DNA of 12,874 bases. It comes from Nitrospiraceae bacterium (lineage in GTDB: Bacteria > Nitrospirota_A > Leptospirillia > Leptospirillales > Leptospirillaceae). Under the pieces are notes generated by a model. That model was not told the DNA's origin. It saw only the letters and a program-made list of their open reading frames with translations, and searched no databases. The position numbers and the translations under genes are program-made. Below, one piece after another: positions 164 through 10,356 of this stretch. The DNA lies in the NCBI GenBank assembly GCA_028064945.1, contig JAPTWQ010000054.1:1-12874 (forward strand), given 5' to 3'. Numbering within the stretch: position 1 is the first letter of the stretch; each line of letters begins with the position of its first letter.

Positions 164-1657
<1,494 letters not shown>

Positions 1658-1688
1658 CCAGACTCTTCTACGACCCTCTTGAGAAAGA

Positions 1689-3239
1689 ATGCCTGACTTG
1701 ACTATTTCTCCTGTCCTGATCCTCGACTTCGGGTCCCAGTTGACACAGAACATCGCCCGTCGAATCCGGGAGATGGAGATCTATTCAGAAATTCTTCCCG
1801 CCACACTTCCGACCCAGGATATACGGGATCGGAACCCCCTGGCGCTCATTCTGTCGGGTGGACCCTCCTCCGTTTACGAGAAAGGCGCACCGACCCTCGA
1901 CCCGTCTCTCCTCGAGATGGGGATCCCCGTTCTCGGCATCTGCTACGGGATGCAGATTATTGCCCACGTTACCGGTGGTAATGTCGAAAGAGCCAAAGTT
2001 CGCGAATACGGGGTCCATCTTTTTTCTCCTTCGCCGAAGGCTACGACCCTATGGGACGCCTTTCGACCTGCCTCACCCGTTCTCATGAGCCATGGAGACT
2101 GGATACAGGATCTACCGAAAGGGTTTAACGTTTCGGGAAGCACCGAGACAACCCCGATCGCCGCCATGGAAGATCCCGCAAAAAAAATCTACGGGGTCCA
2201 GTTTCATCCGGAAGTGACCCAGACCGCCGCTGGAGTAGACTTTTTGCGCCATTTTCTGCGGGATGTCTGCCGAATCGCCCCAAACTGGACGATTCGGGGC
2301 TATCTCGATCGCCATATCGAGGAGATTCGGGAGACCGTCAAGAAGGATCATCTTGTGTGCGCCCTCTCGGGGGGCATCGACTCCACCGTAACAGCCCTTC
2401 TCTGCCACCGTGCCCTGGGAGAGCGCTTTCATGCCATCTTCGTAGACAACGGCCTTCTAAGGCAGGGAGAGCTGGACACGCTCCAAACCGATCTGGCCAC
2501 TCTGAACATTCCCCTCGATGTTGTTGAAGCGGAGAACATTTTTCTTACCCGTCTCAAGGGGGTCTCCGATCCGGAAAAGAAAAGAAAAATTATCGGAAAG
2601 ACCTTCATCGACGTCTTCAGCCGGGAGGCCCGGAAAAGAGGCACCATTCGATATCTGGCGCAAGGGACCCTTTACCCCGATGTCATCGAAAGCGTTTCCT
2701 CCTTCGGGGGTCCGTCGACGGTCATCAAATCCCACCATAACGTGGGGGGACTTCCCTCCCGGATGCCCTTCAAACTGGTTGAACCTCTCCGAGAGCTGTT
2801 CAAGGATGAAGTTCGACGACTGGGGAGAGAACTTGGGCTGTCCGACCGGTTTGTCAATCGGCAGCCTTTTCCTGGCCCGGGCTTGGCCATCCGTATTCTG
2901 GGTTCCATCACTCCGGAGAGACTCTCCATCATCAGAAAAGCCGATGCCGTCGTCCGTGACGAAATCGAAAAATCCCCCTTCAAATCGGACCTCTGGCAAT
3001 ATTTCGCCGTCCTTCTTCCCGTCAAATCCGTCGGAGTCATGGGGGATGCCCGGACCTATGAAAATGTCGTGGCCATAAGATCGGTCCGCTCAGTCGACGG
3101 AATGACCGCCGATGTCCACTATCTGTCCCCCGAACTGCTGGGCCAAATGTCCCACCGCATCATCGCCTCGGTGGAGGGAGTCAACCGCGTCGTTTTCGAT
3201 ATTTCTCCCAAACCTCCCGCCACCATTGAGTGGGAATAA
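1689..3239 (+). CDS. guaA: GMP synthase, glutamine-hydrolysing (GuaA)
   Basis: It converts XMP to GMP using ATP and ammonia released from glutamine, directly after the GuaB reaction. An N-terminal class I glutamine amidotransferase domain (about 1-195) carries the triad: Cys85 in GICYGMQ, and His173 and Glu175 in QFHPEV. The ATP-pyrophosphatase domain has the SGGIDS loop at 227-232. The C-terminal dimerisation/XMP-binding domain ends with the characteristic PPATIEWE. The length of 516 residues is typical. The ribosome binding site is weak (GAGAAAG), so translational coupling from guaB across the 31-nt gap may help. The next gene begins 10 nt after the stop, consistent with one transcript. Confidence 0.98.
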   Translation: MPDLTISPVLILDFGSQLTQNIARRIREMEIYSEILPATLPTQDIRDRNPLALILSGGPSSVYEKGAPTLDPSLLEMGIPVLGICYGMQIIAHVTGGNVERAKVREYGVHLFSPSPKATTLWDAFRPASPVLMSHGDWIQDLPKGFNVSGSTETTPIAAMEDPAKKIYGVQFHPEVTQTAAGVDFLRHFLRDVCRIAPNWTIRGYLDRHIEEIRETVKKDHLVCALSGGIDSTVTALLCHRALGERFHAIFVDNGLLRQGELDTLQTDLATLNIPLDVVEAENIFLTRLKGVSDPEKKRKIIGKTFIDVFSREARKRGTIRYLAQGTLYPDVIESVSSFGGPSTVIKSHHNVGGLPSRMPFKLVEPLRELFKDEVRRLGRELGLSDRFVNRQPFPGPGLAIRILGSITPERLSIIRKADAVVRDEIEKSPFKSDLWQYFAVLLPVKSVGVMGDARTYENVVAIRSVRSVDGMTADVHYLSPELLGQMSHRIIASVEGVNRVVFDISPKPPATIEWE

Positions 3240-7014: not shown

Positions 7015-8628
7015 TCAGGGCAGAATGTCCTCTATTCCATACTTCATCATCCGGTAGCGAAGCTGCCTGGGCGTAATTCCAAGAGCCCGGGCAGCCCGGG
7101 TCTTAACGTATCCATACCTCTTCAAAACCGCCTCGATCTGCTCCTTTTCCAGGCTCGACACAGCCCCGAGGAGTCCTTCCGGGCTTTCCCCACCCGTGGG
7201 ATTGCTCTCATGAGAATCAGTGGGGCGCCCGGTCCCCCCCTCTCCCTCTGCCGAAATCTCCCGTTCCGGATGTGACGTCTTGGGATAGAGCGTCATCGCC
7301 CGGCCCAGGTCCTGGCGCGTGATGGTGGACCCGTGCGCCATCACGACCAGACGCTCCATCATGTTTTCAAGCTCCCGGACATTCCCGGGCCAATCATAAT
7401 TCACCAGCATGTCCATCGCGCCGGGTTCCACAACCACAGTCCGGTCGTTATCCCGGTTGAAACGGTCCAGAAAATGTTCAACGAGGAGGGGAACATCCTC
7501 CTTGCGCTGTCTGAGGGGAGGCAGAAAGAGAGGAACGACATTCAGACGGTAATAGAGATCTTCCCTGAACTGGTTTCGCCGGATCATCTCCTCAAGATTT
7601 CGGTTTGTGGCCGCGATGATCCTGACATCCACGGGAATAACCCGGTTCCCGCCGATTCTCTCCACCGAGCGCTCCTGGAGCACGCGAAGGAGTTTGACCT
7701 GAACCGCTGGGGTGATTTCGCCAATCTCATCGAGGAAGATCGTTCCAGTGTCCGCGGCCTCGAACTTTCCCGGTCTGGCGATGTGCGCTCCCGTGAAGGC
7801 GCCTTTTTCATGGCCGAACAGCTGGCTTTCGAGAAGGGTCTCGGGAATTGCTGCGCAATTGATCTGGACAAATGGTTTTTTCGCCCGGGGACTCAAAAAG
7901 TGGATGGCCTTTGCGATGACTTCCTTTCCGGTTCCGCTCTCTCCCTGGATCAGGACTGTCGCCCGACTGGCCGCAACTTGATAGACCGACTCGGCAATCT
8001 GGTTCATCACCTTGGAGCGGCCGATCCATCCATCAATGGCATAGCGATCTTTCAGGGCATGCTCAAGGCGATGCGTCTCGTCGATCAAGCGCTGGTTTTC
8101 CTCCGAAAACTTCTGTCGGAGAAGGACCGCCTGAACGATGGTGGAACCGATGATCGACAAAACCCGTTTATCTTCCTCGAGATCCCGCTCCCCCTCGGAC
8201 ATGTCGCAATCCGCCGAAAGAACCCCAAGCTTCATTCCCTGAAAAATGAGAGGAACGGCAATAAATGCCATCTTCTTCCGCCCCACTCCCTTTCGGGCTC
8301 CGGTCCTGTTCAGGAAGCGGGGTTCGGCTCCGATATCGGGAACGATGATCGGCAACCCCGTTGAAAGGACTGTTCCAGTGATTCCCTCTCCGATCTTGAA
8401 GCGCCCTTTTTTCTTTTCTTCATCAGACATTCCGTAGGCAAGTTCAGTCATGAGCTCGTTCGTGTCACGCTTCAGGAGAAGTATTGCCCCGCGATGCAGA
8501 TTCAGCTGGCTATCCATGATTCCAAGGATATGGTCGAGAGCCGAATCCAGGTCGGGAGAGCTGGCCAGTTCCCTGCTTATTTCGAAGAAGGCGGTGAGCT
8601 CCCGTATGATTTTTTGTTCGTGATTCAT
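7015..8628 (-). CDS. nifA: NifA-type sigma54-dependent transcriptional activator (GAF-AAA+-Fis HTH)
   Basis: This enhancer-binding protein would use ATP to open sigma54 promoters. In a 537-residue protein counted from the ATG at 8628 the domains are: an N-terminal GAF sensor (about 20-172), a short coiled linker, then the AAA+ domain with Walker A GESGTGKE (229-236), the sigma54-contacting GAFTGA loop (276-281), Walker B IFLDEIGE, and the arginine-finger region FREDLYYRL (354-362). After an acidic Gly/Ser/Glu-rich linker comes a Fis-type helix-turn-helix, TRAARALGITPRQLRYRM, close to the NifA version. A TTG at 8640 would add four residues, but it lies in the U-tract edge of a terminator, and GGAG is placed to serve the ATG. 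The interdomain Cys motif of oxygen-sensitive NifA proteins is absent. The true targets (nif or general nitrogen genes) cannot be told from here, so the symbol is provisional. Confidence 0.75.
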   Translation of the reverse strand: MNHEQKIIRELTAFFEISRELASSPDLDSALDHILGIMDSQLNLHRGAILLLKRDTNELMTELAYGMSDEEKKKGRFKIGEGITGTVLSTGLPIIVPDIGAEPRFLNRTGARKGVGRKKMAFIAVPLIFQGMKLGVLSADCDMSEGERDLEEDKRVLSIIGSTIVQAVLLRQKFSEENQRLIDETHRLEHALKDRYAIDGWIGRSKVMNQIAESVYQVAASRATVLIQGESGTGKEVIAKAIHFLSPRAKKPFVQINCAAIPETLLESQLFGHEKGAFTGAHIARPGKFEAADTGTIFLDEIGEITPAVQVKLLRVLQERSVERIGGNRVIPVDVRIIAATNRNLEEMIRRNQFREDLYYRLNVVPLFLPPLRQRKEDVPLLVEHFLDRFNRDNDRTVVVEPGAMDMLVNYDWPGNVRELENMMERLVVMAHGSTITRQDLGRAMTLYPKTSHPEREISAEGEGGTGRPTDSHESNPTGGESPEGLLGAVSSLEKEQIEAVLKRYGYVKTRAARALGITPRQLRYRMMKYGIEDILP

Positions 8629-8638
8629 GGTCTCCGCC

Positions 8639-8676
8639 AAAAAAAGGGCCTGAACAGAAATTCTTGTCCAGGCCCT
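8639..8676 (-). terminator. Rho-independent terminator of glnA, abutting the nifA-like start
   Basis: Read on the minus strand, AGGGCCTG (8676-8669) pairs perfectly with CAGGCCCT (8652-8645), with an additional ACA/TGT pairing inside the loop. Seven T residues follow at 8645-8639. The terminator lies about 70 nt after the glnA stop. The U-tract ends about 10 nt before the nifA-like ATG at 8628, so expression of that gene needs read-through or a start site in the same short spacer. Confidence 0.85.
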
Positions 8677-8743: not shown

Positions 8744-10153
8744 CTAAACATCGAAATAAAGGAAGAACTCGTGCGGATGGGGCCGAAGGCGAACGGCGTC
8801 CACCTCGCGCTTGGTCTTCAGGCTGATCCACGTCTCGATCATTTCGGGCGTAAAGACTCCACCCTTCAGCAGGAACTCATGATCCTTCTCGAGGGCCGCG
8901 AGGGCTGCATCGAGGCTTCCCGGCATCTGCTTGATCTTCTTCTTTTCCCGATCGGACAGTTCATAGAGGTCCTTGTCGAGAGGAGCCGGAGGTTCGAGCT
9001 TTCTCTCGATCCCGTCGAGTCCGGCCATTAGAAGTGCCGAGAAGACGAGATAGGGGTTGCTGCTGGGATCAGGCGTACGGAACTCGATACGCTTGGCCTT
9101 CTCGCTCTTAGAATACATCGGGATTCGAACGCAGGCCGAACGATTCCGCTTTGAATACATGAGATTGATCGGAGCCTCGTATCCCGGAACGAGTCTGCGA
9201 TAAGAGTTGGTGGTCGGGGCGATAAATGCCAGAAGCGCAGGAGCGTGGTGGATCAAACCACCGATGTAGTGGCGGCAGAGCTCCGAAATATCGCCATATC
9301 CACCCTTCTGATAGAAGAGGTTCTTGCCGGCCTTCCAGAGGCTCTGGTGGACATGCATTCCGGATCCGTTGTCCTGAAAGAGCGGCTTTGGCATGAAGGT
9401 CGCAGTCTTCCCGTATTTGAAGGCAGTGTTTTTCACCACATATTTGTACTTCATGACATTGTCTGCCATCTTGGTGAGAGTGTCGAAACGCATGGCGATT
9501 TCGCACTGGCCGGCGGTGGAGACCTCATGATGATGCGCGTCGCACCGGATGCCGACCTGCTCCATGGTCAGAACCATTTCGCTCCGAAGGTCCTGGAGGG
9601 AATCCGTGGGGGGCACAGGGAAATACCCTTCCTTGTGTCGAACCTTGTATCCAAGGTTCGGCTCTTCCTCCCGGCCCGTATTCCATGTTCCCTCGATCGA
9701 ATCGACGGAATGATGAGAAAAATTCGATCCGGAACCATAACGGACATCGTCGAAAACAAAAAATTCGCATTCAGGTCCCCAATAGGAGATGTCTGCGACT
9801 TTCTTGAGATAATTTTCCGCCCGCTGGGCGATATAGCGAGGATCCTTGGCATAAGACTCTCCGGAGATCGGATCTTTGATGTTCGCGATCAGGGAGAGTG
9901 TTGGAACCTGAGTGAACGGATCGAGAAAGGCGGACTTGGAATCGGGCAGAAGAAGCATATCGGACTCATTGATGGTCTGGAAACCACGGATACTGGAGCC
10001 GTCGAAACCGATACCCTCTTCGAACAGGTCTTCGGTCAGCTGGTGGGCCGTCATGGAATAATGCTGCCAGGTACCAAGCAGGTCGGCGAACTTTATGTCG
10101 ACGATCTGCACATTGTTCTTTTTCGCATAGTCCAGAACTTCTTTCGGGGTCAT
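8744..10153 (-). CDS. glnA: Glutamine synthetase type I-beta (GlnA)
   Basis: It makes glutamine from glutamate, ammonia and ATP as a dodecamer in the cytosol and is the entry point of ammonium assimilation. The protein has 469 residues, the same as the enterobacterial enzyme. Visible motifs are the beta-grasp segment GFDGSSIRGF (49-58), the metal-binding Glu128 and Glu130 in GPECEFF, DAHHHEV (205-211), the NGSGMHVHQS loop (262-271), and the substrate Arg region CVRIP and RIEFRTPDPSSNPYL. Tyr397 in KDLYEL is at the adenylylation position, so the enzyme should be controlled by GlnE. The start ATG follows AGGAG by 9 nt. Transcription is probably governed by the structured leader at 10221-10292, and a strong terminator follows the gene. 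Confidence 0.98.
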   Translation of the reverse strand: MTPKEVLDYAKKNNVQIVDIKFADLLGTWQHYSMTAHQLTEDLFEEGIGFDGSSIRGFQTINESDMLLLPDSKSAFLDPFTQVPTLSLIANIKDPISGESYAKDPRYIAQRAENYLKKVADISYWGPECEFFVFDDVRYGSGSNFSHHSVDSIEGTWNTGREEEPNLGYKVRHKEGYFPVPPTDSLQDLRSEMVLTMEQVGIRCDAHHHEVSTAGQCEIAMRFDTLTKMADNVMKYKYVVKNTAFKYGKTATFMPKPLFQDNGSGMHVHQSLWKAGKNLFYQKGGYGDISELCRHYIGGLIHHAPALLAFIAPTTNSYRRLVPGYEAPINLMYSKRNRSACVRIPMYSKSEKAKRIEFRTPDPSSNPYLVFSALLMAGLDGIERKLEPPAPLDKDLYELSDREKKKIKQMPGSLDAALAALEKDHEFLLKGGVFTPEMIETWISLKTKREVDAVRLRPHPHEFFLYFDV

Positions 10154-10220: not shown

Positions 10221-10259
10221 AAAAAAAGGGCATCTTCATGACATCTCATGAAGACCCCC
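10221..10259 (-). terminator. Intrinsic terminator (attenuator) in the glnA leader
   Basis: On the minus strand TCTTCATGA (10254-10246) pairs perfectly with TCATGAAGA (10241-10233) around a GATG loop. The stem extends outward through a G-T pair and, after one mismatch, three G-C pairs (10259-10257 with 10228-10230). Seven T residues follow at 10227-10221. On the plus strand there is no U-tract, so it acts toward glnA. No gene lies between it and the divergent neighbour that it could end, so it is best read as a conditional terminator 67 nt before the glnA ATG. Confidence 0.85.
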
Positions 10260-10292
10260 TTGTCTTCGCATATCTTTTCCCCTGCCTTGGGA
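10250..10292 (-). promoter_or_regulatory. Candidate ANTAR-binding dual-hairpin antiterminator in the glnA leader
   Basis: Minus-strand hairpin P1 is TCCC (10292-10289), loop AAGGCA, GGGG (10282-10279), with one G-T wobble. After an 11-nt linker, P2 is GAAGAC (10267-10262), loop AAGGGG, GTCTTC (10255-10250), a perfect 6-bp stem. Both loops have six bases with A at position 1 and G at position 4, the known recognition pattern for ANTAR-domain antiterminators. The 3' arm of P2 is part of the 5' arm of the following terminator, so P2 and the terminator cannot form together. P1 is short, which is the main weakness. The regulator would be encoded elsewhere. Confidence 0.7.
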
Positions 10293-10327
10293 TGCCGGAT
10301 ACCTCTCCGCACTCCTCATTGAGAGAA

Positions 10328-10356
10328 AGATTACACGTTGGACAAAAAAAACGCAA
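10328..10356 (-). promoter_or_regulatory. Weak sigma70 promoter candidate for glnA
   Basis: On the minus strand TTGCGT (10356-10351) and TAATCT (10333-10328) are separated by exactly 17 nt. Each box matches only about half of the consensus. Its position fits: a start near 10321 would put about 28 nt before the first leader hairpin and give a leader of roughly 170 nt. I saw no convincing sigma54 site upstream of glnA. Confidence 0.3.

What the first reader, a model, noticed from the sequence alone, without database searches (positions are those of the whole stretch)
10221..10292. ANTAR-type antitermination leader controlling glnA
Seen directly on the minus strand: two small hairpins with six-base loops AAGGCA and AAGGGG (both with A1 and G4), an 11-nt linker, and a terminator with a 9-bp perfect core stem and seven T residues. 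The 3' arm of the second hairpin (10255-10250) lies within the 5' arm of the terminator, so the two folds are mutually exclusive. This matches the known architecture recognised by ANTAR regulators (NasR, EutV, AmiR), and Clostridium NitR/glnA is a remembered precedent for ANTAR control of glutamine synthetase. Finding it before a type I-beta glnA with an intact adenylylation Tyr would mean transcriptional antitermination layered on GlnE-type control. No ANTAR protein is in the window, so a trans-acting regulator is inferred. The first stem is short (3 G-C pairs plus a wobble).
Basis: partly seen in the sequence, partly recalled or inferred. Interest (0 to 1): 0.82.

Follow-up and report, generated by a model that had tools for sequence, protein, structure and literature searches.

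The report
Switchable stop signal before glutamine synthetase
A bacterium related to the iron oxidiser Leptospirillum appears to switch its main ammonia-assimilating gene on and off with a short RNA hairpin in the gene's leader that a nitrogen-type RNA-binding protein can hold open; the switch is of a known type, but many relatives seem to use only one of the usual two hairpins.

Summary
On the minus strand, hairpin P2 (10267-10250, GAAGAC[AAGGGG]GTCTTC) overlaps a strong terminator with seven T, between a promoter-like block and glnA. P2 plus terminator recurs before glnA in 20 of 21 family genomes; a more distant glnA leader keeps P2 with a compensatory pair change. The same core, GACAANGGNGTC, forms P2 of dual-hexaloop leaders in Nitrospira-type genomes, in 6 of 8 within 3.2 kb of a GAF-GAF-ANTAR gene; its relative, beside aroB, is found whole or in part in 16 of 21 family genomes. 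ANTAR antitermination of glnA is the best reading.

Three corrections. Another upstream hexaloop, CGGA[GAGGTA]TCCG, is kept in the window's clade; 13 of 19 aligned leaders (second clade, other genera) show no consistent first hairpin. (2) GlnE was found in 0 of 21 genomes, so there is no 'GlnE layer'. (3) ANTAR targets before genes for glutamine synthesis were predicted in 2012.

What is new: a conserved, apparently single-hexaloop ANTAR leader on a glnA without GlnE. No experiment supports it yet.

The parts
10328..10356 (-). promoter-like block TTGCGT-N17-TAATCT, inferred start of the leader near 10321
   Evidence: Recognisable by eye in the genus's leaders; the seven leaders of the four other genera have TTGACA-N17-TAGAAT at the corresponding place. 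The generic scan does not call it: inferred.
10296..10309 (-). P1-like hairpin CGGA[GAGGTA]TCCG (hexaloop with G1, G4), alternative candidate for the first hairpin
   Evidence: Stem kept in 7 of 7 leaders aligned from this clade, loop G1/G4 in 6 of those 7; about 28 nt before P2, within the spacing seen in Nitrospira-type dual leaders.
   Evidence: Present in the window; 7-nt loop in 5 sister leaders, disrupted in 2, absent elsewhere.
10250..10267 (-). P2 antiterminator hairpin GAAGAC[AAGGGG]GTCTTC
   Evidence: Pattern in 20 of 21 family genomes; pair counts.
10221..10259 (-). intrinsic terminator overlapping P2, with T7
   Evidence: -21.6 kcal/mol against -7.5 for P2 alone.
8744..10153 (-). 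glnA, type I glutamine synthetase with the conserved adenylylation Tyr (residue 397)
   Evidence: PF00120, PF03951; TIGR00653 653.6 bits over cut-off 429.15; Tyr.
8639..8675 (-). second intrinsic terminator, between glnA and nifA (GGGCCTGGACA-N8-TGTTCAGGCCC-T7)
   Evidence: Read, seen in the genus's loci; not called by the generic scan.
7015..8640 (-). nifA, sigma-54 activator downstream of glnA
   Evidence: TIGR01817 555.3 bits over cut-off 528.85; GAF, Sigma54_activat and HTH_8 domains.

Best explanation
It is an ANTAR-responsive transcription attenuator in the 5' leader of glnA. RNA polymerase starts upstream (near 10321, inferred), makes P2, and by default the stronger terminator takes over P2's 3' arm and stops transcription in the T tract. 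When the ANTAR protein is active, most likely the GAF-GAF-ANTAR protein encoded beside aroB, it binds the A1/G4 hexaloop of P2, holds the hairpin, and lets polymerase run into glnA. Shown by sequence comparison: the alternative folds, their conservation, compensatory pair changes, the presence of ANTAR proteins, the P2 core shared with dual leaders near the related ANTAR gene. Inferred: protein binding, the direction of the response, the signal (unknown), the transcription start.
For: Exact P2 pattern in 20 of 21 family genomes, always in a glnA leader (G013 twice, on two contigs), versus 5 of 274 other Nitrospirota genomes, where I estimate about 3 by chance and the backward control rings in 1 of 295. 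Model R1 (built from these leaders and others, so they match by construction): glnA 30.3-34.5 bits in 20 genomes, next best 25.1 bits, inside an open frame. Stem pair 5-18 is A-U in the family and G-C in L105 and the Nitrospira-type copies, broken in 0 of 19 distinct rows; the outer pair goes G-C, G-U, A-U within the family; L105 was found by position and hairpin scan, not by the pattern. P2's 5' arm is outside the terminator yet nearly invariant. P2 alone (-5.2 to -7.6) loses to the terminator (-11.6 to -25.3) in 19 of 19 leaders, so a helper is needed. ANTAR proteins in 19 of 21 genomes; positions reported to contact RNA in EutV (PMC8934654) are kept in 28 of 28 full-length family proteins as read from the motif strings, K147 being Arg in 27. 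Of 10 other genomes of the phylum searched, 8 have an ANTAR protein over the cut-off, 44-48% identical to the family's GAF-GAF-ANTAR protein; in 6 of those 8 it lies within 3.2 kb of a leader with the same P2 core (positions), and next to aroB in the 3 where I saw both. Acidobacterial glnA leaders L107 and L108 carry two A1/G4 hexaloops, 2 of 62 examined, 0 of 62 in the reversed control.
Against: No binding or expression data. The first hairpin that EutV needs in vivo (PMC3369931 and PMC8934654, passages) is not conserved. L105's genome has P2 and terminator but no ANTAR hit (0 of 2 genomes, where the tool warns that nothing rang in its controls either), and its aroB locus is assembled without one (completeness not told). 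Part of P2's loop invariance can come from terminator pairing (AA with the T tract, GGG with CCC). The Nitrospira-type P2 copies were found by pattern, so their core identity is by selection. Pair statistics are mixed: paired cells, changed cells and covariation score are reached in 0 of 500 shuffles, but the number of pairs with a double change is reached in 292 of 500, further pair types in 500 of 500, a +3 slide scores higher on covariation (0.298 against 0.228), and the outer pair is unpaired in 9 of 19 rows. In the window's own genome (81.6% complete) only the nif-linked ANTAR protein is assembled.
Confidence: 0.82

Rival explanations
1. The leader is a dual-hexaloop ANTAR target exactly as the reader drew it (TCCC[AAGGCA]GGGG plus P2).
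For: Both loops have A1 and G4 in the window, linker 11 nt, and 0 of 4000 shuffles give such a pair.
Against: Sister leaders have a 7-nt loop (5 of 8 clade leaders) or a disrupted stem (2 of 8, identical to each other here); 112 of 4000 shuffles give such a P1 alone; another hexaloop in the same leader is better conserved.
Confidence: 0.15
2. A plain terminator that shields glnA from upstream transcription or keeps a constant fraction of transcripts, with P2 formed by accident.
For: The terminator is strong; AA and GGG of the loop also pair in the terminator.
Against: A promoter-like block lies upstream of the terminator in every clade; the 5' arm outside the terminator is nearly invariant and pairs with the 3' arm through compensatory changes; the other genera keep P2 although the leader upstream of it is unrelated.
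Confidence: 0.08
3. P2's 5' arm is conserved because it pairs with sequence after the T tract (an extended hairpin), not because of an antiterminator.
For: In the second clade of the genus GGGRCGAA pairs with TTYGYCCC downstream (-15.1 to -17.9 kcal/mol in six leaders).
Against: In the other 13 of 19 leaders this duplex is -0.2 to -10.4 kcal/mol, so it is not family-wide.
Confidence: 0.03
4. A different trans-acting factor (another RNA-binding protein, a small RNA or a metabolite) stabilises P2.
For: L105's genome shows P2 and terminator without a detectable ANTAR gene.
Against: The P2 core is that of dual leaders near the related ANTAR gene, and the loop follows the A1/G4 rule.
Confidence: 0.1

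Closest known systems
ANTAR dual-hexaloop leaders (EutV/eutP, NasR/nasF, AmiR/amiE; PMC3369931, PMC8934654)
   Same: Hexaloop with A1 and G4, second hairpin overlaps an intrinsic terminator, nitrogen-metabolism gene downstream, ANTAR protein in the genome.
   Different: First hairpin not conserved across the family; one strong target locus per genome at the sequence level; candidate regulator has two GAF domains in place of the receiver of EutV.
Predicted ANTAR targets before genes for glutamine synthesis and other nitrogen genes (PMC3369931, section 10 read)
   Same: Same kind of target gene and same regulatory principle.
   Different: A companion note names Actinobacteria, Bacteroidetes, Firmicutes and Proteobacteria (PMC3369936, passage); the supplementary tables were not read, so Leptospirillum may or may not be listed. 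Here the evidence is comparative within one family and includes a likely regulator.
Nitrospira-type dual leaders before porin/urtA and nrtA-like operons
   Same: Same P2 core GACAANGGNGTC with a terminator; related GAF-GAF-ANTAR gene within 3.2 kb in 6 of 8 genomes.
   Different: 11 of 12 have a first hexaloop (A1 or G1, G4) 4-35 nt upstream; some of the 12 are close relatives of each other; targets are mostly uptake operons, not glnA.
Acidobacterial glnA leaders L107 and L108
   Same: A1/G4 hexaloops with a terminator before a related glnA (66% identity).
   Different: Both hexaloops present, with 8- and 6-bp stems; the terminator is weak (-5.8 to -6.7 kcal/mol for the part folded); sequences unrelated to the window's leader; ANTAR gene in these genomes not tested.

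Membership tests
ANTAR-target RNA | Hexanucleotide loop with A at 1 and G at 4 on a stem of >=3 bp (antitermination hairpin) | tested here: met
   P2 with a 6-bp stem in the window; loop AARGGN in 20 of 21 family genomes.
ANTAR-target RNA | Second such hexaloop upstream (recruitment hairpin), linker about 2-25 nt | tested here: inconclusive
ANTAR-target RNA | Second hairpin mutually exclusive with an intrinsic terminator | tested here: met
   In 19 of 19 aligned leaders the terminator replaces P2 in the minimum-energy fold.
ANTAR-target RNA | ANTAR protein encoded in the genome | tested here: met
   Own genome 1; family 19 of 21, the two without are 64% and 70% complete. Not met for outgroup L105.
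ANTAR-target RNA | Protein binding and antitermination depend on A1/G4 | not testable with these tools
   Needs binding assays and in vitro transcription.
Rfam families | Match at or above gathering score | tested here: not met
   0 matches in the window.
GlnE-controlled glutamine synthetase | Adenylyltransferase GlnE in the genome | tested here: not met
   0 of 21 family genomes at E <= 1e-10 or over the cut-off; 3 of 14 controls ring. Tyr present in 34 of 34 family loci examined, some being records of the same species.

The most novel reading that the evidence does not exclude
A natural single-hexaloop ANTAR antiterminator: in the second clade of the genus and in four other genera P2 alone (27-30 nt after the inferred start in those four genera) suffices for control, with a GAF-GAF-ANTAR protein as regulator, and this attenuator is the main control of a glutamine synthetase that has kept its adenylylation Tyr but has no GlnE.
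Probability: 0.45. Interest if true: 0.68.

Novelty: new variant of a known kind. Interest (0 to 1): 0.52.

Why it matters
EutV work concluded that one hexaloop is the minimal binding unit, yet the upstream hairpin is needed in cells (PMC8934654, abstract and passages). A family in which evolution seems to have kept only the overlapping hairpin would be a natural test of that model. It would also suggest how glutamine synthetase may be controlled in bacteria without GlnE, and gives a concrete candidate regulator (the GAF-GAF-ANTAR gene beside aroB) for nitrogen control in Leptospirillum-like and Nitrospira-type bacteria.

Tried and rejected
Rejected: leader peptide (the ATG frame through the leader is lost in a sister species and other clades, by eye); known riboswitch (no Rfam hit at the gathering score); other copies of P2 in the family (non-glnA one-mismatch hits were about as frequent as in the backward control; model R1 leaves a gap between glnA and the rest, with 150 of 1241-3069 first-look candidates scored per genome). 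The looser pattern search over 295 genomes (its list was cut) was noisy and served only to find the Nitrospira-type leaders. The rows I followed were chosen by hand (20 stretches); they hold 23 pattern hits, of which I kept 12 that by eye are a P2 followed by a terminator, and dropped 11 (one is the first hairpin of L208, the rest by eye coding or without terminator). Absence of the GAF-GAF-ANTAR gene in five genomes (G000, G002, G009, G017, G019) first looked like evidence against it; in all five aroB was not found either (7 genomes searched), so it is probably an assembly gap. My promoter reading of the genus block is by eye; the generic scan did not call it. Paper searches that led nowhere. 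In the 20 of 117 papers listed and the 12 of 22 I saw none on ANTAR antitermination in Leptospirillum or Nitrospira; one Paracoccus paper (PMC9409073, listing only) holds all three terms. Its text, and the text of PMC7496416, were not read.

Full report
What is there.

Is it more than chance. An 87-nt stretch folds better than 200 of 200 shuffles, mainly because of the terminator. Of 4000 dinucleotide shuffles of the 127-nt leader, 8 contain a >=6-bp Watson-Crick A1/G4 hexaloop, and none contains such a hairpin with a second one 2-25 nt upstream. The first hairpin alone is unremarkable: 112 of 4000 shuffles of the 73-nt upstream part have one as good.

Conservation. GlnA was found in 20 of 21 family genomes, and the exact pattern AAGACAARGGNGTCTT in the same 20, each time in the glnA leader; G010 (66% complete) has neither. 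G013 has two copies on separate contigs, both in glnA leaders. In 295 genomes drawn from the phylum 25 match: 20 of the 21 family members and 5 of the 274 others, where I expect about 3 by chance (my own estimate from genome sizes); the backward control rings in 1 of 295. In the alignment of 19 leaders the block AAGACAA-GG-GTCTT is invariant, including a 5' arm that the terminator does not use. On 32 P2 copies (19 distinct rows) three inner pairs never vary; the next pair is A-U in the family and G-C in L105 and the Nitrospira-type copies, with none broken; within the family the outermost counted pair goes from G-C through G-U to A-U. The controls are mixed: paired cells, changed cells and covariation score are reached in 0 of 500 shuffles, but the count of doubly changed pairs is reached in 292 of 500, further pair types in 500 of 500, and a +3 slide has a higher covariation score. 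Twelve of the copies come from Nitrospira-type genomes found by pattern, so their core is identical by selection; L105, a glnA leader with 71% identical GlnA, was found by position and hairpin scan only. In that scan the overlapping A1/G4 hexaloop was found in 15 of 15 family loci and in 3 of 65 others (L105, L107, L108), three of the 65 having 45 or fewer bases of leader.

The first hairpin. Of the 8 leaders of the window's clade, 5 have CCC and GGG around a 7-nt loop and 2 (L032 and L033, GlnA 99% identical to the window's) have lost it. A different hexaloop, CGGA[GNNGNA]TCCG, is found in 7 of the 8; the eighth, L037, keeps the stem with loop ATGAAA, which has no G4. The same scan finds a first hexaloop (A1 or G1, G4) in 11 of 12 Nitrospira-type leaders, 4-35 nt upstream (some of the 12 are close relatives), so the scan can see one when it exists. 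In the second clade of the genus and in the four other genera (13 of the 19 leaders) P2 is the only hexaloop at a consistent place, others being sporadic; in those four genera P2 starts only 27-30 nt after the inferred transcription start.

The regulator. The own genome holds one ANTAR protein, in a cluster with two PII genes (NifI-like by my recollection), a homocitrate-synthase-like gene and modABC-like genes, the latter named by eye. Family-wide there are two kinds: a GAF-GAF-ANTAR protein (full-length in 15 genomes; begun and cut by the contig end in a 16th, G020), directly downstream of aroB in the loci where I saw both (L053, L057, L229, L230), and a short ANTAR protein in the nif-type cluster (full-length in 13 genomes; the cluster was looked at in G000, G004 and G009). 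Pfam was run on one family protein of the first kind (two GAF matches plus ANTAR) and two of the second (ANTAR only). In the five genomes without the first kind aroB was not found either, so the gap is probably in the assembly, G009 (96% complete) included; I did not see a family genome with aroB but without this gene. Residues of EutV reported to contact RNA (PMC8934654, passages) are kept in 28 of 28 full-length family proteins as I read the motif strings against the alignment, with K147 as Arg in 27.

Link between regulator and site. In Nitrospira-type genomes (unnamed; the label is mine) the core GACAANGGNGTC with terminator stands before porin plus UrtA operons (UrtA by TIGR03407 in one; the others by eye) and before nrtA-like operons (by eye). 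Of 10 genomes searched, 9 have a PF03861 match and 8 are over the cut-off; those 8 proteins are 44-48% identical to the family's over about 380-450 residues. In 6 of the 8 the gene lies within 3.2 kb of a leader with the core (positions), in the other 2 on a different contig from the leaders listed; aroB is its neighbour in the 3 genomes where I saw both (G077, G148, G154). This is the best evidence that P2 is the site of that protein family.

Mechanism. P2 alone is worth -5.2 to -7.6 kcal/mol and the terminator -11.6 to -25.3; in 19 of 19 leaders P2 is not in the minimum-energy fold of the whole segment. So termination is the default and something must hold P2 open. ANTAR binding to the hexaloop is the simplest candidate. 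Binding, signal and direction are inferred. A study of L. ferriphilum calls glutamine synthetase highly expressed in ammonium-rich medium (PMC5772234, passage), which neither supports nor excludes the switch.

Consequences for glnA. The glutamine synthetase keeps the adenylylation Tyr (34 of 34 family loci, 65 of 65 others) but GlnE was found in 0 of 21 family genomes, with E. coli, Caulobacter and Corynebacterium among the controls ringing.

Known or new. ANTAR targets before genes for glutamine synthesis were predicted in 2012 (PMC3369931, section 10 read; PMC3369936, passages). The kind is known. A structure paper redefined the minimal motif as a single hexaloop while noting that the upstream hairpin is needed in vivo for EutV (PMC8934654, abstract and passages). 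A family-wide leader that seems to lack a constant first hairpin, on a glnA without GlnE, is a variant I did not see described in the listings and passages of my searches. Against it: L105 has the element and no detectable ANTAR gene, and no experiment exists. Acidobacterial leaders L107 and L108 with two A1/G4 hexaloops before a related glnA (2 of 62 leaders, 0 of 62 in the reversed control; weak terminator) suggest that the classical dual form on glnA exists nearby and that the first hairpin may have been lost here.

Surroundings. Downstream of glnA lies nifA (TIGR01817 over its cut-off). The order glnA-nifA is seen in the window's genus, in genus g4 and in L105, but not in the loci of genera g2, g3 and g5. 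A second conserved terminator separates the two genes in the window's genus, so co-transcription is not assured. Nearest named records to the window's glnA are 'Nitrospirae bacterium' MAGs at 99% and, further off, 'Leptospirillum sp.' MAGs at 79-82% protein identity; that the family is Leptospirillum-like is inferred from these names.

Changes made on checking: wording and counts only (terminator scan, pair-count controls, distances to the ANTAR gene, where aroB was seen, extent of the glnA-nifA order, the uninformative NitR search).

Noticed in passing
window 8696-8639, minus strand: Second intrinsic terminator directly before nifA, with an upstream GGCCC that can pair with the terminator's 5' arm GGGCC; seen with sequence changes in the genus's loci, no A1/G4 hexaloop by eye. 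It may be a separate attenuator for nifA.
   Followed up: partly
L038-L042 and L050, around P2: In the second clade GGGRCGAA before P2 pairs with TTYGYCCC after the T tract, with covarying positions; an extra outer stem of unknown role.
   Followed up: partly
L107:350-425; L108:2374-2450: Acidobacterial glnA leaders with two A1/G4 hexaloops (8 and 6 bp) and a weak terminator: classical dual ANTAR-like leader.
   Followed up: partly
L207:3119-3140 (genome G077): P2-type hairpin and terminator between a GAF-GAF-ANTAR gene and an NAD-synthetase-like gene, without a first hexaloop in the scan: possibly another single-hexaloop leader. The same 15 bases occur in five more genomes of that genus, not looked at.
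   Followed up: partly
L001:214-1740, L056: Short ANTAR protein with a degenerate receiver-like N-terminus (by eye) encoded after two PII genes in a nif-type cluster; Pfam sees only the ANTAR domain. Its own RNA targets were not found.
   Followed up: partly
L053, L057, L203, L207: The GAF-GAF-ANTAR gene lies directly downstream of aroB in both Leptospirillum-like and Nitrospira-type genomes; reason unknown. In L106's genome a NifA-like gene takes that place.
   Followed up: no
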